The notes under the pieces are model-generated. The model saw nothing but the letters and a program-made list of their open reading frames with translations. It ran no database searches and was not told where the DNA came from. A stretch of DNA of 37,765 nucleotides from an uncultured beta proteobacterium (GTDB lineage Bacteria > Pseudomonadota > Gammaproteobacteria > Burkholderiales > Burkholderiaceae_C), in assembly GCA_903856025.1 (NCBI GenBank), contig CAIOAQ010000563.1, positions 1 to 37,765 of the forward strand. Direction: 5' to 3'. Positions 15,455-26,213 of this stretch are shown here, piece by piece; position 1 is the stretch's first letter, and each line of letters opens with the position of its first letter. Both the position numbers and the translations under genes were made by a program.

Positions 15455-15506
15455 AAAGTATTATTACGATAGCAGATAACTCTTTTATTACGAGGGCTAC
15501 AGGCTA
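15455..15506 (-). repeat. Dispersed AT-rich intergenic repeat, copy 4 (reverse)
   Basis: On the minus strand it reads TAGCCTGTAGCCCTCGTAAT, then TATCTGCTATCGTAATAATAC. It fills the whole gap between two convergent stops; its first TAG is the stop codon (15504-15506) of the SRPBCC gene. Confidence 0.65.
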
Positions 15507-16511
15507 ATTTGTTACTAACACGGGCACATTGACCTCGGTGATCCAGTCGTTACTGGGTGCCGTACTGGCGTTGAACACATGGGTCTCAAACGGAGGTGAG
15601 CGCTGGTCGGGCTTGAGTTTGTCCTGGGTCATGCGTTGCATGGCGAGGTACCAGGCCAGTTCCAGTGCGGAGTGGTCACCCTGTAACACCACCCGGAAGA
15701 CGCGTTGCGCCGGCATGTTGCGCACGGGCATGTCACCCACCTCCGCATCGCCTATGGGCAAGCCCATCAGGCAGACGGTGGTGCGCAACTTGATGTTGGT
15801 TCGCGTGTAGAGCGCCAGAGGTGCGCCAACAGGCGAAATACCCAGCACGGCAAGCTGGCTGTGCAACCCTGAAAAACATTCTTGCATGGCCGCGGGCAGC
15901 CCTTTGATGGTGCCCTGATACGTTTGGTAGACATACCTGCAAGCAGGCGCTTCCTGCAGTCCAAGCACTGAGAGCTGGTAGCGCGGCGCGTCGGTTGGCT
16001 CCAGCAAGCTGGCCAGCCGATCGAGCCCGTATCTGCTGTCGAGCTCCAGTGCACCTTTGACGGTCTGCGAAAAGGCACGCATGGTGAACGCTACCCGGGC
16101 TTTTATTTGCCAGGTCACTTCTGTCATGCCCTCACGTTCGGTAAATGTCCAGCGGCTGCGGCCATGCACCACAAAGGGTTGTTTCAACTGCATGCGTTGC
16201 TCAATGCTTTTGAGCGTCGCGATGCGCACCAAGCGGATGACGCCCATGCCTGCCTTGTCGCTGTCCCAGGCACACTCGCTGCCAGGTTGGCCACTGGTGC
16301 CACTGACTGTGAGTTCGGCTCCAGGCTCGTGCGCTAGCCAGGGGTTCCACGCGCCCCATTGCTGAAAATCAACCACCTTGGCAAATACCTGCTCAATGGG
16401 CGCATGGATCACGCGGCTTTGCGTGACCCGCACGCGGCCACTGTAGCGGGCCATGTAGACCAGTACCGCCACGACGCAAAACAGTGTCACAAAAATAAGG
16501 GTTGAGGCCAT
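15504..16511 (-). CDS. Membrane-anchored SRPBCC domain fused to GyrI-like domain
   Basis: The 335-residue protein has one N-terminal hydrophobic helix (about 4-22). A SRPBCC/polyketide-cyclase-like ligand pocket follows at about 27-165 (SRVIHAPIEQVFAKVVDFQQ, with WNPW a few residues later). The C-terminal half (about 175-330, with CRYVYQTYQGTIKGLPAAM, then RTTVCLMGLPIG) resembles a GyrI-like or AraC effector-binding domain. Both folds bind small hydrophobic ligands; the function is unknown. It is alone on the minus strand between the MBL gene and the TRAP operon; the dctM terminator lies just upstream. Confidence 0.72.
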   Translation of the reverse strand: MASTLIFVTLFCVVAVLVYMARYSGRVRVTQSRVIHAPIEQVFAKVVDFQQWGAWNPWLAHEPGAELTVSGTSGQPGSECAWDSDKAGMGVIRLVRIATLKSIEQRMQLKQPFVVHGRSRWTFTEREGMTEVTWQIKARVAFTMRAFSQTVKGALELDSRYGLDRLASLLEPTDAPRYQLSVLGLQEAPACRYVYQTYQGTIKGLPAAMQECFSGLHSQLAVLGISPVGAPLALYTRTNIKLRTTVCLMGLPIGDAEVGDMPVRNMPAQRVFRVVLQGDHSALELAWYLAMQRMTQDKLKPDQRSPPFETHVFNASTAPSNDWITEVNVPVLVTN

Positions 16512-16584: not shown

Positions 16585-17868
16585 CTACAGCATGCCCATC
16601 ATTCGCGGCACCACCAGGGTCAGCCATGGCCAGTAGGTCACGATGACCAGGAACACGATCATGGTCCCCAACCACGGCAACACCGCTTTGGTCAGTTCGG
16701 TGATGCCAAGTTTGGAAATTCCCGAAGCGACGTACAGGTTCAGCCCCACCGGTGGATGGCACAGGCCGACCTCCATGTTCACGTCGATCAAAATACCAAA
16801 ATGCACCGGGTTGATGCCCAGCTGCATGGCCGCCGGAAAGAAAATCGGTGCCATGATCAGGATGATGGAAGACGGTTCCATGAAGTTGCCCGCAGCCAAC
16901 AAGATGATGTTGACGACAAACAGGAAGCCTTCCCTGCCCAGGTTCATACTCAGCATCCAGTCGGCCAGTCGGTGCGGCAGATTCTCGTTGGCCAACACAA
17001 ATGAGAACAGTGTGGCGTTGGTGATGATGTAGAGCAGCATCGCCGACATGTTGGCCGAGTCGCGCAGTACCTTGGGCACGTCCTTCATGCCCATGTCCTT
17101 GTAGACAAAGATCGAAACAAAGAACGAATACACCGCCGCCATGGCAGCCGCTTCAGTCGCCGTGAAAATGCCAGAGTAGATGCCGCCGACGATGATGACT
17201 ACCAACATCAGTCCCCAGACGCTGTTCTGGAAGAACTTCAAGCGCTCCATCCAGGTCGCCTTTTTCATGCGCGGGTAATTGTTCTTCTTGGCGATGTACC
17301 AGGTCACGCCACCCAGCATGAAGGCCAGCATGATCCCCGGCAGCAGACCAGCCACAAACAATGCGCCAATGGAGGTGTTGGTGGAAATGGCATAGATGAC
17401 TTTCGGAATGCTGGGCAGCATCAGAATGCCCAGTGAACCGGCGGTGATCATGACCCCCGCCCCAAAGGCCATCGGGTAGCCATGCGCCACCATCGCCGGC
17501 AGCACGATGGAACCGATCGCCACCACGGTCGCGACGCTGGAGCCACATACCAGTGCGAACATGGCGCAGGCCAGAATGGAGGCCAGCGCCAGACCGCCAT
17601 GGAAGTGCCCAACAATGGAGGTCGCAAAGTTGATCATGCGCCTGGCCACACCACCGTGCGTCAGGAAGTTGCCCGCCAGGATGAAGAAGGGAATCGCCAT
17701 GATTTCCCATTTTTCGATACCGGTGAACAATTTGAGCGCTACGGCTTCCATGGGCACCTGCGTCATGGTCACGATAAAGGTCAGTACCGTCAGGCCCAGC
17801 GAGATCGAAATGGGCATGCCGGTCAGCATCAGGGCGATCAGCAGCCCAAACAGGATGGAGGCATTCAT
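16585..17868 (-). CDS. dctM: TRAP transporter large permease DctM
   Basis: From ATG 17868 the product has 427 residues, the normal DctM length. It is a polytopic membrane protein with family marks ILFGLLIALMLTGMPISISL near the start, an early GIEKWEIMAIPFFILAGNFL segment, and the late VDVNMEVGLCHPPVGLNL-type motif (here IDVNMEVGLCHPPVGLNLYV). It forms the transport channel, using the sodium gradient to move carboxylates delivered by the binding protein. The start codon overlaps the dctQ stop (ATGA), showing translational coupling. The open frame reaches 17907, but the coupled ATG is the better start. It is the last gene of the operon; a strong terminator follows. Confidence 0.92.
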   Translation of the reverse strand: MNASILFGLLIALMLTGMPISISLGLTVLTFIVTMTQVPMEAVALKLFTGIEKWEIMAIPFFILAGNFLTHGGVARRMINFATSIVGHFHGGLALASILACAMFALVCGSSVATVVAIGSIVLPAMVAHGYPMAFGAGVMITAGSLGILMLPSIPKVIYAISTNTSIGALFVAGLLPGIMLAFMLGGVTWYIAKKNNYPRMKKATWMERLKFFQNSVWGLMLVVIIVGGIYSGIFTATEAAAMAAVYSFFVSIFVYKDMGMKDVPKVLRDSANMSAMLLYIITNATLFSFVLANENLPHRLADWMLSMNLGREGFLFVVNIILLAAGNFMEPSSIILIMAPIFFPAAMQLGINPVHFGILIDVNMEVGLCHPPVGLNLYVASGISKLGITELTKAVLPWLGTMIVFLVIVTYWPWLTLVVPRMMGML

Positions 17869-18569
17869 GGCTTGGTACCTCCGTCTTTGGGATGGCTTTT
17901 GGCCCATTCTTTGTCGCCTTGCCCCAGGTGGACATGCGTAATTTCCTCACCTTCGGCAAGCACTTCGCCCACGAGTGAGGCCTCGTCTTCAACGCCTTCG
18001 ACGTGGGCATGGTCATGGTGCGGCAGTTCACCTGTTTTTACAAAAGTCCAGGCGACTTGCATAAACCTGAACGACATCAGGGAAGAGCCAAGCGGAATGG
18101 CGCAATACACCATCCAGGTGGGCCATTCCAGATCGGGGGTCGTCGGCCCCTCCGGAATGTCACCCACGTCCATGCCAAAAAATTGGAGGAAAGCATGATG
18201 TGCACCGTTTTCCCACACAAAGTGTCCACCCAAATAGCCGATGCACCCCGTGAACAGGGCTCCTGCCAACAAGGCGAAGAGGACAAACTTGGCGCGTGTT
18301 TTTTCTTCCAGGCGGTTGACCACCACATCCACGCCCACGTGAATGCCGGTGCGCACACCGTAGGCGGCACCAAATTTGGCCATCCAGACAAACATGATGA
18401 TGCAAAGCTCTTGCGCCCAGCTGAAGTTGAGCGTCAACAACCAGTCTTGCAGGTAAGGAATGGGGGCGCTGGCAAGGTAGCGATGCAACACCGAAAAGAA
18501 AATCAGCAGTGTGGCACCGCCCATGAGGAAGGAGATGATCCATTCCTCTAGGTGGTCAAGAAATTTCAT
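17865..18569 (-). CDS. dctQ: TRAP transporter small permease DctQ with long acidic/His tail
   Basis: The 234-residue protein has four predicted membrane helices (about 9-30, 47-68, 92-116 and 150-175), with the family pattern of FSWAQELCIIMFVWMAKFGA and RTGIHVGVDVVVNRLEEKTR. Typical DctQ proteins are about 160-200 residues. Here the second periplasmic loop is long (GGHFVWENGAHHAFLQFFG...) and a C-terminal cytoplasmic tail of about 50 residues is added, rich in His, Asp and Glu (LPHHDHAHVEGVEDEASL). The tail might bind metal or a partner. It lies 51 nt after dctP and overlaps dctM by 4 nt. Confidence 0.9.
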   Translation of the reverse strand: MKFLDHLEEWIISFLMGGATLLIFFSVLHRYLASAPIPYLQDWLLTLNFSWAQELCIIMFVWMAKFGAAYGVRTGIHVGVDVVVNRLEEKTRAKFVLFALLAGALFTGCIGYLGGHFVWENGAHHAFLQFFGMDVGDIPEGPTTPDLEWPTWMVYCAIPLGSSLMSFRFMQVAWTFVKTGELPHHDHAHVEGVEDEASLVGEVLAEGEEITHVHLGQGDKEWAKSHPKDGGTKP

Positions 18570-18620: not shown

Positions 18621-19616
18621 TTACAGTTTTGCCGGATCGAAGTTGGTGGCTTTGTAAATTGATTCAAGCAAATCCTTGCCGACTCGATCAGCCATCTTGG
18701 CATGGGTGGGCACAAGCACCTTTTTCAGTGCCAAACGCTCTTCTTTGCTGGGTACATACACGGTGGTCTTGCCAGCTTTTTTAACACCTTCAAGCGCTTG
18801 ATCGTTGTCTTTTTGAGCCACTTGGTTGGCTAGATCAGTGGCTTCTTTCATGGCCTGCTCCAATTGGCCTCGTACATCAGCCGGCAAGCCGTCCCAGAAC
18901 TTCTTGTTGACAATCACGGCGTATCCCAGATAGCCATGGTTGGTCAGGGTGAGGAACTTTTGCACTTCATTCATCTTCTGGCTGTAGAAGTTGGAGATCG
19001 GGTTTTCAGTGCCGTCGACCACCCCAGTTTGCAGGGCTTGATAGACCTCAGAAAAAGCCATCACCTGCGGAATGCCACCCAACGCACGAATTTGTTCTTC
19101 GAGTACCTTGGAAGATTGGATGCGGAATTTTTTACCCTTGAAATCAGCGGGCACTTTCAGTGGGGTGTTGGCAGAGAAAGCTTTGAAGCCGTTGTCCCAG
19201 AATGCCAGTCCCTTGACGCCCTTGGGCTCGAGCTTGGCCAACAAACTGGCACCAATCGGACCTTGCGTGATTTTGTGCAGATCCGCCCTGTCGTCAAAAA
19301 TGAAGGGGAAGTCAAACACTTCAAATTCTTTCACCCCCAAAGGGCCAAACTTGGCAAGCGAGGGGGCCAGCATCTGCACGGCACCCATCTGCAATGCTTC
19401 CATCTCTTCCTTGTCTTTGTAGAGTTGGCTGTTCGGGTACACATCCACCTTGACTTTGCCCTTGGTCAGTTCGGCTGCCCGTTTGGCAAAAAATTCTGAG
19501 GCCTGCCCTTTGGGTGTGTCGGTCGCAACCACATGGCTGAACTTGATCACGATTTGTGCTTGGGCGCTCAATCCAAAGGCCAACAGTGCTGCGGCAAGGA
19601 TGGTTTTCAGTTTCAT
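18621..19616 (-). CDS. dctP: TRAP transporter substrate-binding protein DctP (transport partner)
   Basis: The 331-residue protein has a clear signal peptide (MKLKTILAAALLAFGLSAQA, cleavage after residue 20). The mature DctP fold has KFSHVVATDTPKGQASEFFA, FDFPFIF, the ligand-contacting Arg165 in KKFRIQSSKVL, and ALQTGVVDGTENPISNF. The arginine conventionally clamps the substrate carboxylate. Substrate is likely a C4-dicarboxylate or another organic acid. TGGAGA lies 5 nt before ATG 19616. It is first in dctP-dctQ-dctM. The 33-bp repeat shared with the dctP2 upstream region lies 65 nt before its start. Confidence 0.92.
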   Translation of the reverse strand: MKLKTILAAALLAFGLSAQAQIVIKFSHVVATDTPKGQASEFFAKRAAELTKGKVKVDVYPNSQLYKDKEEMEALQMGAVQMLAPSLAKFGPLGVKEFEVFDFPFIFDDRADLHKITQGPIGASLLAKLEPKGVKGLAFWDNGFKAFSANTPLKVPADFKGKKFRIQSSKVLEEQIRALGGIPQVMAFSEVYQALQTGVVDGTENPISNFYSQKMNEVQKFLTLTNHGYLGYAVIVNKKFWDGLPADVRGQLEQAMKEATDLANQVAQKDNDQALEGVKKAGKTTVYVPSKEERLALKKVLVPTHAKMADRVGKDLLESIYKATNFDPAKL

Positions 19617-19680
19617 GTTTGTCTCCAGTTATTGATTTAAACGACGCGAGGCGAGATTAGCTATAAATTTGCATTGGGGT

Positions 19681-19713
19681 AACTGTGGTGTTCAACAGCT
19701 AGGGTTAACCCGA
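19681..19713 (-). repeat. 33-bp shared upstream element, copy A (before dctP)
   Basis: It matches the element at 22389-22421 at 32 of 33 positions and is in the same orientation. It includes the perfect palindrome GGGTTAACCC and the string GTTCAACAGCTAG. It starts 65 nt upstream of dctP and overlaps the last codons and TAA stop of the chemotaxis gene. Its position fits an activator site for dctPQM, but a recombination footprint is possible. Confidence 0.8.
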
Positions 19714-21291
19714 ATTTGTGGTGCTGTTAAGTTGAAATCGATGCACCAAGCCGCTGAGGTGGTCTGACTGTTGTCGCAACGAGGCCGCGGCTGCAGCAGA
19801 CTCTTCGGCCAAGGCCGCGTTTTGATGGGCCACTACGTCAAGCTGTCCGACCAATTGATTGGCTTGTTCAATGTGTGCGAGTTGCTGCGCGGCCTCGCCT
19901 GTGATGGTGATCACCATGTCGCTGACGCGCCGTACCGAGGCAGTGACCTCATGGGTGGTGCGTCCGGCTCGGTCCACTTGTGCGGTGCCCGAGACCACTT
20001 TCTCCAGTGATGCTTCAATCAGGGCCTTGATTTCTTTGGCCGCACCCGCGCTGCGCCCGGCCAGCGACCGAACTTCGCTGGCCACCACAGCAAAACCACG
20101 TCCCTGCTCACCCGCGCGAGCGGCCTCGACAGCGGCATTGAGCGCCAGGATATTGGTCTGGAATGCGATGCCGTCAATGATGGCAATGATGTCAGCAATC
20201 TTGTGTGATGCGGTGTCAATTTCTCCCATGGTGGCGACGACCTGGGCCATTTCTGCACCGCTGCGGGTAGCCACCTCACTGGCCTGCGTGGAGAGTGAAT
20301 GTGCCGATCTGGACGCCGCTGTGGTTTCGTTGACCGAGGTGCTCAACTGTTCAATGGCCCCCATGGCGGTTTGTAGCGTGTTGGCCGCTTCTTCTGTGCG
20401 GTTGCTCAAGTCCATGCTGCCCTGTGCGATTTCGCCGCTGGAGTTGTTGACATCTTCCGAGGCGGTGCCCACACCCGTGGCGAGTTGGTGCAGATTGACT
20501 CGCATGGTTTCTAGCGCCACAAGCAGGTCACCGATCTCGTCTTGTCGGCTGGTATCTACAGGTTGGGATAGATCGTGTTTGGCCATGCGTTCAGTTGCAG
20601 CCACGGCCGTGTGAATGGCTTTGCGGGTGTCACGCACCAACCACACCGCGATCAGGCTGCCCGTCACCAACACCAGCAATGCCCCGGCGATCATTGCCTG
20701 GCGGGCGGTTTGAGCGTTGACAGTGGCCTGGGCGGAATGCGTTGCATTGGCTTCGTCATGCCAGTCGCTCAGCTGGTTCACGGCCTTGCTCCACGTGTTT
20801 TGTCGCTGGCTCCAGACGGCCGTGTTGTCGCGGTACTCGTTTCGTACCTCAAAGGCTTGTGCGGCTGCCCCACGGCCTTCGGCCCGTTTGTCGCCGATGC
20901 CTTGCAACTCAGCCGCGGCCGTCGATGCCTTTTGAACTTCCTGGAACAGGGCCTGGACATTCTGATCGTTGGGCAGCATGGTTTTCACCTTGGCCTGGGC
21001 AGCCTCATAAGCGGTCATGACGGTGCGTATACGCGTCAAAACCACAGGGCCACCCGCCAAGTCCGTACTGCCAAGATCGCCCATATCCTGCACATACGCC
21101 GCAAGCTGGCGTTTCATGACATTGAGGGTTTCCGCGCGCGCAGCGTTGTGCACGGTAATGACTTCTAATGCAGAAGTTAACGTGTGCATCTGTATCAGCG
21201 ACATGGCGGTGCCGCCCAGCATCATGGCTAAAAGTGTGCCAAAGCCAAGGGTCAAACGTGCGGCCAAGCTCAATTGAGAAATCAGTTTCAT
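19705..21291 (-). CDS. Methyl-accepting chemotaxis protein
   Basis: The 528-residue protein has a first membrane helix at about 11-33, a periplasmic helical ligand or partner domain (about 34-198), a second helix at about 199-219 and a HAMP domain (about 218-270). The cytoplasmic signalling rod has the conserved tip [18 protein letters not shown] and the [18 protein letters not shown] stretch. No NWETF-type receptor tail for CheR/CheB is present at the C-terminus (ends [12 protein letters not shown]). It follows dctP2 by 57 nt on the same strand with an AAGGA 9 nt before its ATG. The pairing suggests that DctP2 delivers the ligand signal to this receptor's periplasmic domain, as binding-protein-dependent receptors do. 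Confidence 0.92.
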
Positions 21292-21348
21292 TTTTTCGAA
21301 TCCTTGGAAAACAGTGAAGGCGAAGCTCAGTGCAAATGCAATGAAAAT

Positions 21349-22332
21349 TTATCGATTGGCCTGTAGTGCAGCCTGGATCAAATCTTGACCAATGTCTTGC
21401 TCAAACTTCTTCCAAACGGGTTGCATGGCGGTGCGCCAGAGTTGGAGTTGATCCGCATTCAATGGCAGCACATGGACGTGTTTCTGTGCCATCACATGAC
21501 TGCGAAATGTGGCTTCTTCGTCATGTGCAACCTGGTTACCAAAGCGGATCGATTCCGCCATCGCTTCAGACAAACCCTTTTGTATATCGGGTGGCAGGGC
21601 ATTCCACCACTTCGCGTTGCCGATCACCATGTAAGCCAGTACCCCATGGTTGCTGTCCATGATGTAGGGCTGCACTTCATGAAAGTGCTGGCTGTAAATG
21701 TTGGACCATGGATTCTCCGCGCCATCAACCAGGCGGGTTTTCATGGCAAGGTAGGCTTCTGAAAATGGAATTTTTTTTGGCTTTGCACCAACAGCCCTGA
21801 ATTGGGCATCGAGCACGTCAGATGATTGAATCCGAAATGTCAGTCCCTTTGCATCCTGTGGGCGATACAGCGGTGTGTTGGCCGAGAGCTGTTTCATGCC
21901 GTTTTGCAAATAGCCGAACCCGTAGATGCCCTTGGTGGACAGGGAAGTTAGCAAACTCTGCCCATGCGGGCTGGCCTGGAACCTCTCAACCGCCGCCATG
22001 TTGTCAAACAAAAAAGGCAGGTCAAAAATTTGCAACTGGTGCGTGTATTGGTCAAATTTGGAAAGTGAGGGCGCGATGATTTGAACGTCACCCAGCAGCA
22101 GTGCCTGCATTTCCTTGTCATCGCCAAAAAGCTGGCTGTTGGGAAATACTTGTATCTGCACCTTGCCGGCTAGTTTTTTTTCAGCTAATTCTTTGAATTT
22201 GATAGCCGCCTGCCCTTTTGGAGTGACATCGGCCACCACGTGGCTGTATTTGATAATGATGGGCATCGCCCGCACGTCAATATGCAGCCCCAGGCCCAGC
22301 AATAGGAATGGCACCATCAAGGCGAATTTCAT
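21349..22332 (-). CDS. DctP-type binding protein 2, paired with the chemotaxis receptor
   Basis: The 327-residue protein has a short export signal (MKFALMVPFLLLGLGLHIDV, cleavage near RAMP). The DctP fold follows: IKYSHVVADVTPKGQAA, FDLPFLFDN, Arg167 in LTFRIQSSDVL, then AMKTRLVDGAENPWSNIYSQ. The carboxylate arginine is kept, so it should bind an organic acid. It has no dctQ or dctM beside it. The next gene downstream is a chemotaxis receptor, so its role is more likely sensing than transport. Compared with dctP and dctP3, it has a distinct loop near residue 200 (TRLVDGAENPW in place of TGVVDGTENP). The shared 33-bp element is 57 nt upstream of its start. Confidence 0.87.
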   Translation of the reverse strand: MKFALMVPFLLLGLGLHIDVRAMPIIIKYSHVVADVTPKGQAAIKFKELAEKKLAGKVQIQVFPNSQLFGDDKEMQALLLGDVQIIAPSLSKFDQYTHQLQIFDLPFLFDNMAAVERFQASPHGQSLLTSLSTKGIYGFGYLQNGMKQLSANTPLYRPQDAKGLTFRIQSSDVLDAQFRAVGAKPKKIPFSEAYLAMKTRLVDGAENPWSNIYSQHFHEVQPYIMDSNHGVLAYMVIGNAKWWNALPPDIQKGLSEAMAESIRFGNQVAHDEEATFRSHVMAQKHVHVLPLNADQLQLWRTAMQPVWKKFEQDIGQDLIQAALQANR

Positions 22333-22388
22333 TTATTTCCCGATAAGAAGCATGGGTTGCAAGCCTATCGGTAGCAAAGATTTCAAGC

Positions 22389-22421
22389 AACTGTGGTCTT
22401 CAACAGCTAGGGTTAACCCGA
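22389..22421 (-). repeat. 33-bp shared upstream element, copy B (before dctP2)
   Basis: It is 32/33 identical to 19681-19713; the one difference is C for G at the tenth base. It starts 57 nt upstream of dctP2 and overlaps the TAA stop of dctP3. Since the two upstream genes (a chemotaxis protein and a binding protein) are unrelated at their 3' ends, shared coding ancestry does not explain the match. Confidence 0.8.
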
Positions 22422-23477
22422 TCCCTGATGCAAAGCGGCTTGTAAAGCGTTGATCCAATCCTGCCCAATGCGGCTCGCCAACTGTTGGTAAACCGGCTGG
22501 ACTGCCTGACGCATGTGGGCGCGTTGGCTGTCATGAAGGGCATGGATGCGCGTCGTGCCCAGTTGGCGCAGCAAGCCTAGCGCCCGGTCGTTTTGCGCAT
22601 CAGCAATCTGGTTGGCAAATGTCAGGGCTTCCTGCAGCGCCTGGTTGATGATTTCGCGGTCAGGGTTGTTCAGGCTTTGCCACAAGTGCTGGTTGGTGAC
22701 CACCGCGTAGCCCAGGTAGCCGTGGTCGGTCAGGCTCAAATCGCTTTGCACCTCGTGCATCTCCTGTGTCCAGAAATTGGACACCGGGTTTTCGGTACCA
22801 TCGACCACGCCTGTGGCCAGGGCCTGGCGGGTTTCACTGAAAGCCAGTGTCACGGGGCGTGCGCCCAACGCGCGCATTTGTGCCGCAATCACGCGTGAGG
22901 CCTGTACCCGCATGCGCAAGCCGACAAAATCTATGGGCTCCAGCAACGGTCGATTGGCACTCATTTGCTTGAAGCCATTGTCAAAAAACCCCAGCCCCAC
23001 CAGCCCTTGACGCTGCAAGCCCGTCAGCAGCTTGTTGCCCAAGTTTCCTTGTGTGACGCGCCTGACCGCGTTCAGGTTTTCAAACAAAAAAGGCAAATCA
23101 AAAAGCTCAAATTCAGGAAGTCCGATGCGACCGAACTTGGACAGTGAGGGTGCGACCAAGTCCACTGCGCCGAGCTGTAAGGCTTGCATCTCGTCGAGGT
23201 CGCCATACAACTGTGCATTCGGATAAACCTGCACGGCGATGCGTCCGCCAGTGCGTTGCTCCACCAGCACCTTGAAGCGGTTGGCTGCCAGCCCCTTTGG
23301 TGTTTCTTCGGCCACCACATGCGAAAAACGCAACGTGATCTCAGGACGGGTCGTGGCCATCCCGAGGTGCGGCAAGGTTGCCACGCTTGCGGCGGCAGTA
23401 AGCAATGCGCGTCTGCCCAAGCCTGTCGCTTTGGCGGACTCGGTGGAAAGGTGGGTGGGTAGGCAAATCACGGGCAT
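22413..23477 (-). CDS. DctP-type binding protein 3, divergent from the sensor kinase
   Basis: The 354-residue protein carries a long N-terminal extension ending in GLGRRALLTAAASVATLP, a twin-arginine-like signal (Arg22-Arg23). The mature DctP fold has LRFSHVVAEETPKGLAANR, FDLPFLFEN, Arg190 in LRMRVQASRVI, and ALATGVVDGTENPVSNFWTQ. It has no permease gene beside it. It is divergent from the dctS-like kinase; start codons are only 46 bp apart, so promoters must overlap. In Rhodobacter capsulatus and other bacteria, DctP-type proteins and DctS kinases work together; by analogy this copy may be the periplasmic ligand sensor for the kinase. Export by Tat rather than Sec is a prediction only. No good ribosome site is visible at 23477. 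Confidence 0.85.
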   Translation of the reverse strand: MPVICLPTHLSTESAKATGLGRRALLTAAASVATLPHLGMATTRPEITLRFSHVVAEETPKGLAANRFKVLVEQRTGGRIAVQVYPNAQLYGDLDEMQALQLGAVDLVAPSLSKFGRIGLPEFELFDLPFLFENLNAVRRVTQGNLGNKLLTGLQRQGLVGLGFFDNGFKQMSANRPLLEPIDFVGLRMRVQASRVIAAQMRALGARPVTLAFSETRQALATGVVDGTENPVSNFWTQEMHEVQSDLSLTDHGYLGYAVVTNQHLWQSLNNPDREIINQALQEALTFANQIADAQNDRALGLLRQLGTTRIHALHDSQRAHMRQAVQPVYQQLASRIGQDWINALQAALHQGSG

Positions 23478-23523
23478 GAGATTACATCAATTGGCTATCA
23501 TGCGAGGACTCCTTTGCCAGACC

Positions 23524-25560
23524 ATGACTTCACGCGCTCCGACTGCCGCAGACCAAACACTTGACTTTGCATTGTTGCAACAGCCAGCCGCGCGCCACAT
23601 CGGGCGCAATCGCCGCGCCCTGTGGTGGTTGTTGGGCTGGTTGGCACTGCTGTTGGGTTCGGTGGCGGCGCTGCTGATGTACCTGAATAATTTCGAGAGA
23701 GAAGAAGCGGCACGCCGCCGCGCCGCCGATGCCCAATGGCTGGAGCAAAGTGTGCAATTTCATTTTCGTCGTCTGGAAGACGATTTGTTGTTTTTGGCGC
23801 GCCACGAGGTGCAGCAAAGTAACGGGGATCCCCTCTCGCAAGACCGTCAACAGTTTGACCTGAAAGCCGGATTGCTCTGGCGTGAACCGGATGTGGTGGT
23901 CGCCAGTGGCTGGATTCCAGCGGGGAAATTCAACAACCGACAGACCGGCCCCCAACGCTGGCTGGAAGACTGGCAAGCCCACGCAGACAACGCACAAGCC
24001 TTGGCGCTGATGTTGTCCACAAGCCAAGGGTTGCGCCGCGAAGCCTATGCGGGCCTGATGCTCAAACCGGATGGACAGGCCACGGATGTGGTGTGGTTGG
24101 CCGTGCCGTTTTTTGACCGTGGTCAATTTGTGGGCGATTATCTGGCCGCCGTTTCAGTCGGACATGCCCTGGCAGCTTTGGTGCCGGGCTGGTTCAAGCA
24201 GGACCACGGCGTGCAATTGCTCACCGATGAGACCACGGTACAGCCAGACACCGCCTACCGGGTCGGTTTGCAATTGCCCGGTACCGATCTTTTTGTGCAA
24301 GTGGCATTAACCCAGGAGCAACCCACCACGGTGCCGCGCATTTTCTTTTTGGTGGCCCTGTTGTTTTTAACCGGCATGCTGCTGAGTTTGTACGCCTTGC
24401 GACGTGACTTTATGAAACGCCAGGAGGTGCAGGCTCGGCTGCAAGCCCAGGTGGCACTGCGCACGGCCATGGAAAACTCGGTCACCATCGGTTTGAGGGC
24501 CTGGAATTTGAGTGGGCGGATTTTGTATGTGAATGAGGCGTTTTGTCGCATGTTGGGTTATGGCACCACTGAATTGATTGGCCGCACCCCACCTTTCCCC
24601 TATTGGCCAACGGATCAACGCGAAGCATTGGAGCGGGTACATGAAGGCATCATGGCGCAAGGCACCAGCGGCGAAGGTGTGGAGGTGCAGTTCCAGCACA
24701 GTGACGGACATCTGGTGGATGTGTTGATCCATGAAGCCCCCTTGAATACCGCCACCGGCGAGCAAATGGGCTGGATGAGCTCGGTGCTGGACATCAGCGA
24801 GCGCAAGCGGGCCCAACGCATGGCCGCGCAGCAGCAGGAAAAGCTCGAAGCGTCGGGTCGTTTGGTGGCAGTGGGCGAAGTTGCTTCCACCTTGGCGCAT
24901 GAGCTCAACCAGCCGCTGGGGGCACTGAGTAGCTTTTCCAACGGACTGCTCAACCGTTTGCATGACGGCAGCATCACGTTGCCTGAATTGCTGCCTGTGG
25001 TGGAGCGCATGGCGGGTCTGGCCAAACGCGCCGGCGGCATCATCAAACGCGTCAACGCGTTTGCACGTCGGCGCGAGCTTTCCCGCCAACGTCTGGATCT
25101 GGTGGGCGTGCTGCAGCGGGTGATTCTGTCTTACAGCGAGGATCACACCCTGGCGCCCACCTGGTCGCTGCCCGCGCACCCCATATGGGTGGACGCTGAC
25201 GAATTGCTGCTGGAGCATCTGGTGATCAATCTGGTCGGCAACGCGCAAGACTGGGCACCACATGGTGGCCGGCGCGCTCAGGTGTGGGTCAGCTTGGGAT
25301 TGGGTGATGACCACACCACAGCGGTGCTGGCCGTCGCCGATACCGGGCCTGGTGTCAGTGAGGACGCGCAAACCACCATTTTCAATGCGTTTGTGAGCCG
25401 CAAGGAAGGGGGCATGGGCATGGGGCTGGCCATTTGTCGCTCGATTGTGGAAGCGCACCACGGTCGCATCGAGGTCAGTCGGGACCCGGTGTTGGGTGGT
25501 GCACGTTTTACGGTGTTGTTACCTTTGGCCAATCAGTCCGCAGAGAAGGAATCCGCATGA
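23524..25560 (+). CDS. dctS: DctS-like sensor histidine kinase
   Basis: From ATG 23524 the product has 678 residues: membrane helix 1 at about 30-53 (WWLLGWLALLLGSVAALLMY), a periplasmic sensor domain of about 215 residues, helix 2 at about 272-295, and a PAS domain at about 311-440 (SGRILYVNEAFCRMLGY, ELIGRTPPFPYWP). The dimerisation box follows with phospho-accepting His459 (TLAHELNQPLGALSSF), then a GHKL ATPase (HLVINLVGNAQDW, VADTGPGVSED, GGMGMGLAICRSIVEAHHG). The order matches DctS of Rhodobacter capsulatus and FixL-like kinases. Its stop overlaps the dctR start (ATGA), so the two are coupled. The signal is probably a carboxylate, sensed directly or through DctP3. Confidence 0.88.
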   Translation: MTSRAPTAADQTLDFALLQQPAARHIGRNRRALWWLLGWLALLLGSVAALLMYLNNFEREEAARRRAADAQWLEQSVQFHFRRLEDDLLFLARHEVQQSNGDPLSQDRQQFDLKAGLLWREPDVVVASGWIPAGKFNNRQTGPQRWLEDWQAHADNAQALALMLSTSQGLRREAYAGLMLKPDGQATDVVWLAVPFFDRGQFVGDYLAAVSVGHALAALVPGWFKQDHGVQLLTDETTVQPDTAYRVGLQLPGTDLFVQVALTQEQPTTVPRIFFLVALLFLTGMLLSLYALRRDFMKRQEVQARLQAQVALRTAMENSVTIGLRAWNLSGRILYVNEAFCRMLGYGTTELIGRTPPFPYWPTDQREALERVHEGIMAQGTSGEGVEVQFQHSDGHLVDVLIHEAPLNTATGEQMGWMSSVLDISERKRAQRMAAQQQEKLEASGRLVAVGEVASTLAHELNQPLGALSSFSNGLLNRLHDGSITLPELLPVVERMAGLAKRAGGIIKRVNAFARRRELSRQRLDLVGVLQRVILSYSEDHTLAPTWSLPAHPIWVDADELLLEHLVINLVGNAQDWAPHGGRRAQVWVSLGLGDDHTTAVLAVADTGPGVSEDAQTTIFNAFVSRKEGGMGMGLAICRSIVEAHHGRIEVSRDPVLGGARFTVLLPLANQSAEKESA

Positions 25561-26213
25561 CCCAACCCCGTGTGCATATCGTTGACGATGACCCCGACAT
25601 TCGCGACGGCTTGGCTTGGTTGTTTGATTCGCGTGGTTTTCAGACGGCCACCTGGGACGGTGGCCAAAGCTTTCTGGACGCCGCGCGCGCGCTGCAGGGC
25701 GAGTGGGGCCATGCGGTGGTGCTTCTGGACATGCGCATGGCACCGCTCTCTGGCACGGTCACCTTTGATCAGCTCAAGGCCATGGCCTGTCCGTGGCCCG
25801 TGCTTTTCCTGACCGGCCACGGTGATGTGGGAACTGCCGTGGCCGCGGTCAAACAAGGGGCTTGGGATTTTCTTGAAAAGCCTTTTCAGGACAACGAACT
25901 CGTGGACCGGGTGCAGCAAGCCTTGACGGCTGCCAGCGCGGCGGTACAGGACGACTCTGAGACGCGTCGCCTGCGGCAGGCACTGGCCTCGCTCAGCCCG
26001 CGGGAGCGCGAAGTGCTCGACGAGTTGATTCGTGGCCATTACAACAAAAACATTGCCGACCATTTGGGCATCACCCCGCGCACAGTGGAGTTTCACCGCG
26101 CCCACATTTTCGAGAAAATGGGGGTGAGTTCGGCAGTGGAGTTGGCCCACAAGCTGGGGCGCCTGGAACCGATGAGTTCATCATTAAACTGGCCTCTGCC
26201 CCTCGTAATATAA
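25557..26213 (+). CDS. dctR: DctR-like response regulator (FixJ/NarL type)
   Basis: The 218-residue protein has a receiver domain with the acidic cluster VDDDPD (9-14), phospho-accepting Asp58 (VVLLDMRMAP), Thr86 (FLTGHGD) and Lys108 (LEKPF). A LuxR-type helix-turn-helix covers about 147-195 (LSPREREVLDELIRGHYNKN, then TPRTVEFHRAHIFEKMGV). This is the FixJ/TodT-like architecture of DctR, the activator of TRAP dct genes in Rhodobacter. ATG 25557 overlaps the dctS stop. The last seven residues (WPLPLVI) and the TAA stop come from a dispersed repeat inserted at the gene end. Confidence 0.9.
   Translation: MTQPRVHIVDDDPDIRDGLAWLFDSRGFQTATWDGGQSFLDAARALQGEWGHAVVLLDMRMAPLSGTVTFDQLKAMACPWPVLFLTGHGDVGTAVAAVKQGAWDFLEKPFQDNELVDRVQQALTAASAAVQDDSETRRLRQALASLSPREREVLDELIRGHYNKNIADHLGITPRTVEFHRAHIFEKMGVSSAVELAHKLGRLEPMSSSLNWPLPLVI

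What the first reader, a model, noticed from the sequence alone, without database searches (positions are those of the whole stretch)
18621..26213. Three DctP paralogues wired to uptake, chemotaxis and gene control
Seen: three DctP-type binding proteins, each keeping the carboxylate Arg (165, 167 and 190), sit together. Only the first has dctQ and dctM. The second is followed by a chemotaxis receptor. The third is divergent from a DctS/DctR pair with 46 bp between starts. Known: DctP proteins can assist DctS-type kinases, and binding proteins can dock to chemotaxis receptors. Inferred: gene duplication produced a dedicated binding protein per output, so one locus reads a carboxylate and adjusts transport, swimming and transcription. 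I know of no described system with this full layout.
Basis: partly seen in the sequence, partly recalled or inferred. Interest (0 to 1): 0.78.

Follow-up and report, generated by a model that had tools for sequence, protein, structure and literature searches.

The report
Sensor binding protein with swappable transporters
A Rhodoferax-like bacterium carries three related carboxylate-catching proteins in one gene cluster; comparison with relatives suggests that one is a sensor partner for the cluster's gene switch, one feeds the uptake pump, and one has lost its own pump and now sits beside a swimming receptor.

Summary
In detail: three dctP, an mcp, dctQM and divergent dctSR lie where stated; dctP3-dctP2-mcp-dctP1-dctQ-dctM look like one operon. 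(1) DctP3 with DctS is well supported: of 89 genus genomes, 52 have both, 2 one, 35 neither. The pair stays together beside three transport modules, including DctA in three genomes without a close DctM. DctP3 distances track the DctS periplasmic domain (r 0.90 against 0.61 for DctP1 on the same 32 loci). DctP3 is most likely a sensory binding protein. (2) DctP2 with the MCP is not supported as stated: in 23 of 24 genus relatives dctP2 precedes its own dctQ2/M2, and the linked MCP follows dctP3 in 6 of 6. Here and in G249 DctP2 lost its permease, evolves fast, stays under purifying selection and adjoins the MCP; a chemotaxis role, a second transport role or decay remain open. (3) The triad reflects exchange of transport cassettes rather than local triplication. 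Contacts between proteins are untested. Novelty: a new variant of binding-protein-assisted sensing.

The parts
22413..23477 (-). dctP3: TRAP-type binding protein (354 aa, R190) with no permease of its own; proposed sensory partner of DctS; Tat-like GRRALLTA N-terminus (by eye, no predictor run)
   Evidence: PF03480 312 bits; one clade of 65 rows; co-occurs with DctS
21349..22332 (-). dctP2: TRAP-type binding protein (327 aa, R167), orphaned from its dctQ2/M2; fast-evolving
   Evidence: PF03480 327 bits; synteny
19705..21291 (-). mcp: chemoreceptor (528 aa), modelled periplasmic four-helix bundle, HAMP, MCPsignal
18621..19616 (-). dctP1: binding protein of the TRAP permease (331 aa, R165)
   Evidence: PF03480 361 bits; directly before dctQM here and in relatives
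17865..18569 (-). dctQ: small permease subunit
   Evidence: PF04290
16585..17907 (-). dctM: large permease subunit (its second Met codon, at 17868, would overlap the dctQ stop by 4 bp)
   Evidence: PF06808 and TIGR00786 over cut-off
15504..16511 (-). polyketide_cyc2 protein (cyc) that travels with this P1QM cassette in several relatives
23478..23523 (.). 46-bp divergent gap between dctP3 and dctS
   Evidence: upstream box
23524..25560 (+). dctS: histidine kinase; presumed periplasmic domain about aa 53-270 (by eye), then PAS, HisKA, HATPase
   Evidence: low-confidence model
25557..26213 (+). dctR: response regulator; ATG at 25557 overlaps the dctS stop by 4 bp

Best explanation
The locus has a fixed sensor head and an exchangeable transport part. 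Head: DctP3, a TRAP-type binding protein with no permease of its own, captures a C4-dicarboxylate-type ligand in the periplasm and, when loaded, docks on the periplasmic domain of DctS. DctS then phosphorylates DctR, which activates the operon. Transport part: DctP1-DctQ-DctM does the uptake here; in relatives the same place holds DctP2-Q2-M2 or the symporter DctA. The operon also carries a four-helix-bundle chemoreceptor that probably reads the same ligand, through DctP3, through DctP2, or directly. DctP2 is the binding protein of a lost P2-Q2-M2 transporter, kept under selection beside the receptor. Shown by sequence: gene order, DctP3-DctS co-occurrence and co-variation, the different modules, absence of M2 here, accelerated DctP2. 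Inferred: the ligand class, docking on DctS, activation by DctR, any docking on the MCP.
For: Genus profile of 89 genomes, own included: DctS N-terminal part (aa 1-273, E<=1e-20) in 53, DctP3 (E<=1e-105) in 53; both 52, DctS only 1 (G277, 75% complete), DctP3 only 1 (G227), neither 35 (Fisher p 2e-22, not corrected for kinship). Family sample, 199 other genomes: DctP3 at >=56% identity in 18, and the matching DctS in the same 18, in one (G137) only its linker part at a contig end. The 56% line was drawn by me in a gap between 56 and 52%; a 52% hit in G292 proved to be a DctP1. By coordinates 16 of the 18 are head to head, 1 tandem, 1 contig break. Of 69 dctP3 loci, 43 have dctS directly divergent; in five without it in 6-8 kb of upstream DNA it is elsewhere in the genome. 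DctP3 sits beside P1QM, P2Q2M2 or DctA. G051, G167 and G038 (98-99% complete) have DctP3-DctA and no DctM above 35% identity to the window's; G053 and G137 likewise lack one. Distances: DctP3 to DctS periplasmic part r 0.909 (n=47), partial on DctR 0.83, on the DctS kinase part 0.72; on 32 shared loci DctP3 0.903, DctP1 0.613; on 17 shared loci DctP3 0.906, DctP2 0.54. The carboxylate Arg is invariant in P3.
Against: No interaction was measured or modelled. DctS has a periplasmic domain that may bind ligand itself (weak Cache-like matches of a poor model, pLDDT 57). DctP3 keeps the Glu equivalent to the SiaP permease-contact residue E172 in 62 of 65, so it might still serve a permease, and in nearly all genus loci it stands before a transport module or the MCP (not in L055 and L081). 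In 11 of 69 loci 1-6 called ORFs lie between dctP3 and dctS. Co-occurrence and distance correlation within one family share ancestry, and DctP3 and DctS usually travel as linked genes while cassettes are exchanged, which alone raises their correlation. The MCP's partner is undecided: the receptor type occurs in two genomes without DctP3 (G290, G292), and the MCP-DctP3 distance correlation adds little beyond the signalling domain (partial 0.25, permutation 0.11, n=12; genus alone 0.64, n=7, untested).
Confidence: 0.7

Rival explanations
1. One reading: DctP1 serves uptake, DctP2 serves the chemoreceptor, DctP3 serves DctS, each dedicated.
For: DctP2 here and in G249 lacks Q2M2; the two copies are sister (SH-aLRT 99, quick tree) with long branches, with 19 and 33 changes at 162 columns invariant in 28 permease-linked DctP2, against 0-7 for leave-one-out controls. 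The ligand Arg and purifying selection remain (dN 0.20-0.23, dS 1.9-2.8, near saturation). Both orphans lie directly next to the MCP.
Against: The MCP follows dctP3 in 6 of 6 other linked genus loci and in two of them (L063, L084) no dctP2 is present in the locus. The orphans share one origin, so this is one event. G249 is a diverged lineage: its DctP3 is also the most diverged of 48 (67.6 against a median of 70.7%). Orphan changes are enriched where P3 also departs (window 5 of 18 against 4 of 71, p 0.015; G249 8 of 18 against 5 of 71, p 0.0004), but the permease-linked rows L145_P1 (5, 4) and L131_P2 (4, 2) look alike; at 100% conservation (4 of 11 against 3 of 57; 5 of 11 against 4 of 57) no control row exceeds (2, 0).
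Confidence: 0.2
2. DctP2 is a second transport binding protein for DctQM, or a slowly decaying relic of the displaced P2Q2M2 transporter.
For: P2Q2M2 has this place in 23 of 24 other genus genomes with dctP2; no M2-class DctM elsewhere in this genome; accelerated change.
Against: Reading frame intact, low dN/dS, kept in two lineages since orphaning. TRAP binding proteins are usually permease-specific (recalled).
Confidence: 0.45
3. The chemoreceptor binds C4-dicarboxylate directly and is merely co-regulated with uptake.
For: Four-helix-bundle model (pLDDT 82) resembling Vc1313, Tsr, Tar and the malate-bound MCP2201. Receptors with a different, 4HB_MCP_1-type domain sit directly after dctM in G202 and G178, which fits repeated co-regulation. 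The same LBD type occurs in two genomes without DctP3.
Against: Weak Foldseek E-values (best 9e-4); no Pfam domain over cut-off for the LBD and no PDB sequence match. The receptor gene adjoins a binding-protein gene in 7 of the 8 genus genomes that carry it, own included.
Confidence: 0.45
4. DctP3 is only a second transport binding protein, and its tie to DctS reflects regulation of a two-SBP transporter.
For: Keeps the ligand residues and the E172 equivalent; in nearly all genus loci in front of a transport module or the MCP.
Against: Five genomes with DctP3 and DctS have no DctM above 35% identity; in three of them DctP3 precedes DctA, which needs no binding protein as far as known (recalled).
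Confidence: 0.12

Closest known systems
DctB-DctS-DctA of Bacillus subtilis (Graf 2014, not held; described in a passage of PMC6978683)
   Same: A co-receptor protein, a DctS kinase and DctA form a C4-dicarboxylate sensing unit; here DctP3-DctS-DctA loci occur in three family genomes.
   Different: Here the binding protein-kinase pair is also found with two different TRAP modules and, in a few genomes, a chemoreceptor. Sequence kinship of DctP3 with DctB, or of the two DctS, was not tested.
BctC-BctE of Bordetella (TTT system; passages of PMC5812351)
   Same: A transporter binding protein needed for two-component induction of its operon.
   Different: BctC does both transport and signalling; DctP3 has no permease of its own and is of the DctP, not the TctC, family.
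DctP homologues of Bordetella pertussis whose membrane parts seem non-functional (passage of PMC5812351)
   Same: A DctP-type binding protein kept and expressed although its permease is lost, as for DctP2 here.
   Different: Role there unknown; no chemoreceptor link is mentioned in the passage.
DctPQM with DctSR of Rhodobacter capsulatus (passages of PMC4268860)
   Same: DctSR-dependent control of dctPQM; in G007 and G013 of this family dctRS is divergent from a single dctP1QM.
   Different: The extra DctP3, and a DctS whose N-terminal half has its close matches only in the DctP3 set (17 genomes at E 4e-54 or better plus the cut G137; next 5e-31).
Binding-protein-assisted chemoreceptors such as MBP-Tar (reference listed in PMC9602780)
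   Same: Four-helix-bundle receptor encoded beside binding proteins.
   Different: Docking is untested. I saw no DctP-chemoreceptor pair in the listings or in the passages read; PMC9602780 says that at least 13 SBP families bind receptors, but the review that lists them was not held.

Membership tests
TRAP C4-dicarboxylate transporter (DctPQM) | DctP, DctQ and DctM encoded together | tested here: met
   dctP1-dctQ-dctM: Pfam cut-offs passed for all three; NCBIfam for DctP and DctM, none for DctQ
TRAP C4-dicarboxylate transporter (DctPQM) | Own DctQ/DctM for DctP2 | tested here: not met
   None in the locus; no M2-class DctM elsewhere in the 92%-complete genome; DctQ not searched genome-wide
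TRAP C4-dicarboxylate transporter (DctPQM) | Ligand carboxylate Arg in each DctP | tested here: met
   R165, R167, R190 in one invariant column
TRAP C4-dicarboxylate transporter (DctPQM) | Transport of C4-dicarboxylates | not testable with these tools
   Ligand class inferred from nearest PDB entries named C4-dicarboxylate-binding DctP
Binding-protein-assisted sensor kinase (DctB/DctS, BctC/BctE type) | Binding protein gene linked to and co-inherited with the kinase | tested here: met
Binding-protein-assisted sensor kinase (DctB/DctS, BctC/BctE type) | Physical contact between binding protein and kinase periplasmic domain | not testable with these tools
   Only indirect: distance correlation
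Binding-protein-assisted sensor kinase (DctB/DctS, BctC/BctE type) | Binding protein needed for induction | not testable with these tools
   Needs a deletion strain
Binding-protein-assisted chemoreceptor (MBP-Tar type) | Periplasmic ligand-binding domain of a type known to accept binding proteins (four-helix bundle) | tested here: met
   (model, weak E-values)
Binding-protein-assisted chemoreceptor (MBP-Tar type) | Co-inheritance of receptor and one particular binding protein | tested here: inconclusive
   DctP3 present in 13 of 15 genomes with this receptor type (8 of 8 genus, 5 of 7 others); G290 and G292 lack it
Binding-protein-assisted chemoreceptor (MBP-Tar type) | Loaded binding protein docks on the receptor | not testable with these tools
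   No complex prediction available

The most novel reading that the evidence does not exclude
One locus in which a sensor-only TRAP binding protein (DctP3) drives DctS, while a transporter binding protein (DctP2), set free when its permease was displaced, has been recruited as a chemotaxis adaptor: uptake, gene control and swimming read the same carboxylate through three paralogous DctP, assembled by cassette exchange.
Probability: 0.22. Interest if true: 0.82.

Novelty: new variant of a known kind. Interest (0 to 1): 0.6.

Why it matters
TRAP binding proteins are usually treated as transport parts. A lineage of DctP that stays with its kinase while the transporter beside it changes from one TRAP to another, or to DctA, points to binding proteins specialised for sensing. 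It makes the question of how DctS-type kinases detect C4-dicarboxylates directly testable. The orphaned DctP2 beside a receptor is a natural case for asking whether a binding protein can change from transport to chemotaxis.

Tried and rejected
Rejected: simple local triplication (P2 and P3 are each one supported clade and P1 nearly so, all wider than the genus). Rejected: DctP2 as the receptor's usual neighbour. Rejected: chimeric assembly as the cause of P2 plus P1QM, because G249 shows the same pair in a different order. Led nowhere: PDB and Pfam searches with the receptor LBD and the PDB search with the DctS N-terminal part; the DctS model is too poor to use; the plasmid search gave 3 records with matches to 3-5% of the query. 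The convergence test between orphan DctP2 and DctP3 changes is weakened by its control rows. The MCP-DctP3 distance test was not significant.

Literature: eight full-text searches of open-licence papers; I saw their listings, and passages of PMC6978683, PMC9602780, PMC9352664, PMC10942642, PMC5812351, PMC3180692 and PMC4268860, no whole text. In these I saw no account of a sensor-only DctP paired with DctS in this family, nor of a DctP-MCP pair. Two likely relevant papers were not held (Matilla 2021; Graf 2014), so absence from print is not claimed.

Rows dropped: DctP ORFs without the start motif or under 270 aa before the tree (141 rows kept); L059 and any L058 row left out, L059, L058 of the invariant-column count; loci without dctP3 left out; loci without all needed genes left out. 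Notebook slips: one entry says 71 dctP3 loci and leaves the sum wrong; one search gives 69.


Full report
WHAT IS THERE. On the minus strand, in transcription order: dctP3 (22413-23477), dctP2 (21349-22332), mcp (19705-21291), dctP1 (18621-19616), dctQ (17865-18569), dctM (16585-17907). On the plus strand: dctS (23524-25560) and dctR (25557-26213). Domains are confirmed by Pfam. The 46-bp gap and the three arginines are right. The three DctP are 43-48% identical to each other.

CONTEXT. The genome (4.04 Mb, 592 contigs, 92% complete) has three further, distant DctP and three further DctM; none of these DctM is of the M or M2 class (at most 34% identity). The six genus relatives that the named collection returned are titled Comamonadaceae bacterium, Rhodoferax sp. 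or uncultured beta proteobacterium (L113-L118).

SYNTENY IN THE GENUS. I fetched 60 stretches from 58 of the 88 other genus genomes, chosen for a DctP2 ortholog or a close DctP, and annotated them. The core is dctR-dctS divergent from dctP3. After dctP3 usually comes one of two TRAP modules: P1-Q-M, or P2-Q2-M2 (Q2 31-34%, M2 50-52% identical to the window's Q and M). Of 24 relatives with a full or nearly full dctP2 (a 25th, G257, is a fragment), 23 have dctQ2 directly after it; only G249 has dctP2 followed by P1-Q-M. The receptor with this LBD is in 7 of 88 other genus genomes at 47-72% identity; further genomes have only 20-36% matches. In six it follows dctP3 directly (L039, L044, L051, L057, L063, L084), in front of P2Q2M2, P1QM or P2-P1QM; in G229 it lies elsewhere. 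The window, with dctP2 between dctP3 and mcp, is the exception.

MOSAIC. The window's P1, Q, M and cyc match G245 at 94, 91, 96 and 65%, while its R and P3, S and glx match G217 or G121 better (R 91-93 against 83, P3 78-81 against 72). The transport cassette was therefore probably exchanged under a resident sensor head; no breakpoint analysis was done.

DCTP3 GOES WITH DCTS. In the family sample (199 other genomes) DctP3 at 56% identity or more is in 18, and the matching DctS is in the same 18; in G137 only the DctS linker part is seen, at a contig end. The line at 56% is mine, drawn in a gap down to 52%; a 52% hit in another genome (G292) proved to be a DctP1. In the genus (89 genomes, own included) both are present in 52, one alone in 2, neither in 35. 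P1-Q-M without DctP3 and DctS occurs, for example in G223 (100% complete). Among 69 dctP3 loci, window included, 43 are directly head to head with dctS, 11 have 1-6 called ORFs between, 13 have no dctS in the stretch (eight of these have about 1.3 kb or less of upstream DNA), one has dctS downstream on the same strand and one (L128) was left unclear by overlapping ORFs, though its coordinates are head to head. In the five with longer upstream DNA, dctS is elsewhere in the genome.

DCTP3 WITHOUT A TRAP PERMEASE. In L138, L141 and L142 (G051, G167, G038) dctP3 is followed by dctA, over the NCBIfam DctA cut-offs. A DctM search of these and of G053 and G137 found nothing above 35% identity, against 70, 69 and 50% for G121, G072 and G002. 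A binding protein kept with DctS beside a symporter that needs none is best read as a sensor. This is the logic described for B. subtilis DctB-DctS-DctA (passage of PMC6978683). In the genus, dctP3 also stands apart from a transport module in L055 and L081.

CO-VARIATION. Pairwise distances of DctP3 and the DctS periplasmic part correlate at 0.909 (n=47), and at 0.72 after removing the kinase part. On the same 32 loci DctP3 gives 0.903 and DctP1 0.613; on the same 17 loci DctP3 gives 0.906 and DctP2 0.54. Linked inheritance explains some of this, because cassettes move and the head does not; no test here separates that from contact.

DCTP2. Window and G249 DctP2 form a supported pair (99, quick tree) with long branches. 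Their mean identity to six outgroup DctP2 is 67.2 and 62.0%, against a median of 78.8% and a next-lowest of 76.4% among 24. The window's DctP3 is at the middle of 48, so its genome as a whole is not fast; G249's DctP3 is the most diverged of the 48 (67.6 against a median of 70.7%), so part of its DctP2 divergence may be lineage-wide. DctP2 changed at 19 (window) and 33 (G249) of 162 columns invariant in 28 permease-linked DctP2; leave-one-out controls change at 0-7. Several changes lie in the helix around the Glu that corresponds, by offset from the alignment range, to SiaP E172, a permease-contact residue (passages of PMC9352664); the Glu itself is kept in the window. dN is about 0.2 with dS near saturation, so the gene is under purifying selection. 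This fits release from permease contact with some function kept. It does not say which function.

RECEPTOR. The LBD model is a four-helix bundle, nearest in fold to Vc1313, MCP2201, Tsr and Tar (weak E-values). MCP2201-like direct sensing and Tar-like docking are both compatible. Outside the genus the same LBD type (50-53%) is not beside a dctP in the DNA fetched, at most 8 kb a side and less for some. Five of those seven genomes have a head-to-head dctP3-dctS; G292 has a classical dctRS-P1QM without dctP3; G290 has no DctP above 34% identity to DctP3. Receptors of the 4HB_MCP_1 type follow dctM in G202 and G178, so receptors have joined this operon more than once.

CONCLUSION. The strongest part is DctP3-DctS; the DctP2-MCP link is a hypothesis that the genus-wide order weakens but the orphaning of DctP2 keeps alive.

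Noticed in passing
window 23478-23523 and L035-L092 upstream of dctP3: A CATAAT box stands a few nt before the dctP3 ATG in many relatives (CATGAT, further upstream, in the window, by eye), which suggests a nearly leaderless dctP3 transcript.
   Followed up: no
L060:5151-6881, L137:3529-5190, L106:10276-11913: Other chemoreceptors directly or closely after dctM in G202, G178 and G229; receptors join dct operons repeatedly.
   Followed up: partly
L038:9290-10408, L047:5763-6902: MscS-type channel genes between dctS and dctP3 in some genus genomes.
   Followed up: no
dctP3 N-termini, L035-L092: Nearly all readable genus DctP3 N-termini carry an RR motif of Tat type, while DctP1 and DctP2 look Sec-type (by eye); several DctP3 outside the genus lack it.
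   Followed up: partly
L119 and L120 contigs (G287:C14, G288:C84): Equal contig lengths suggest that the receptor and dctP3-dctS lie about 25 kb apart on the same contig in these two genomes.
   Followed up: no
L106 (G229:C1:944000-960000): A second dctRS-dctP1QM locus with an MCP downstream, in a genome that also has a P3-type locus.
   Followed up: no
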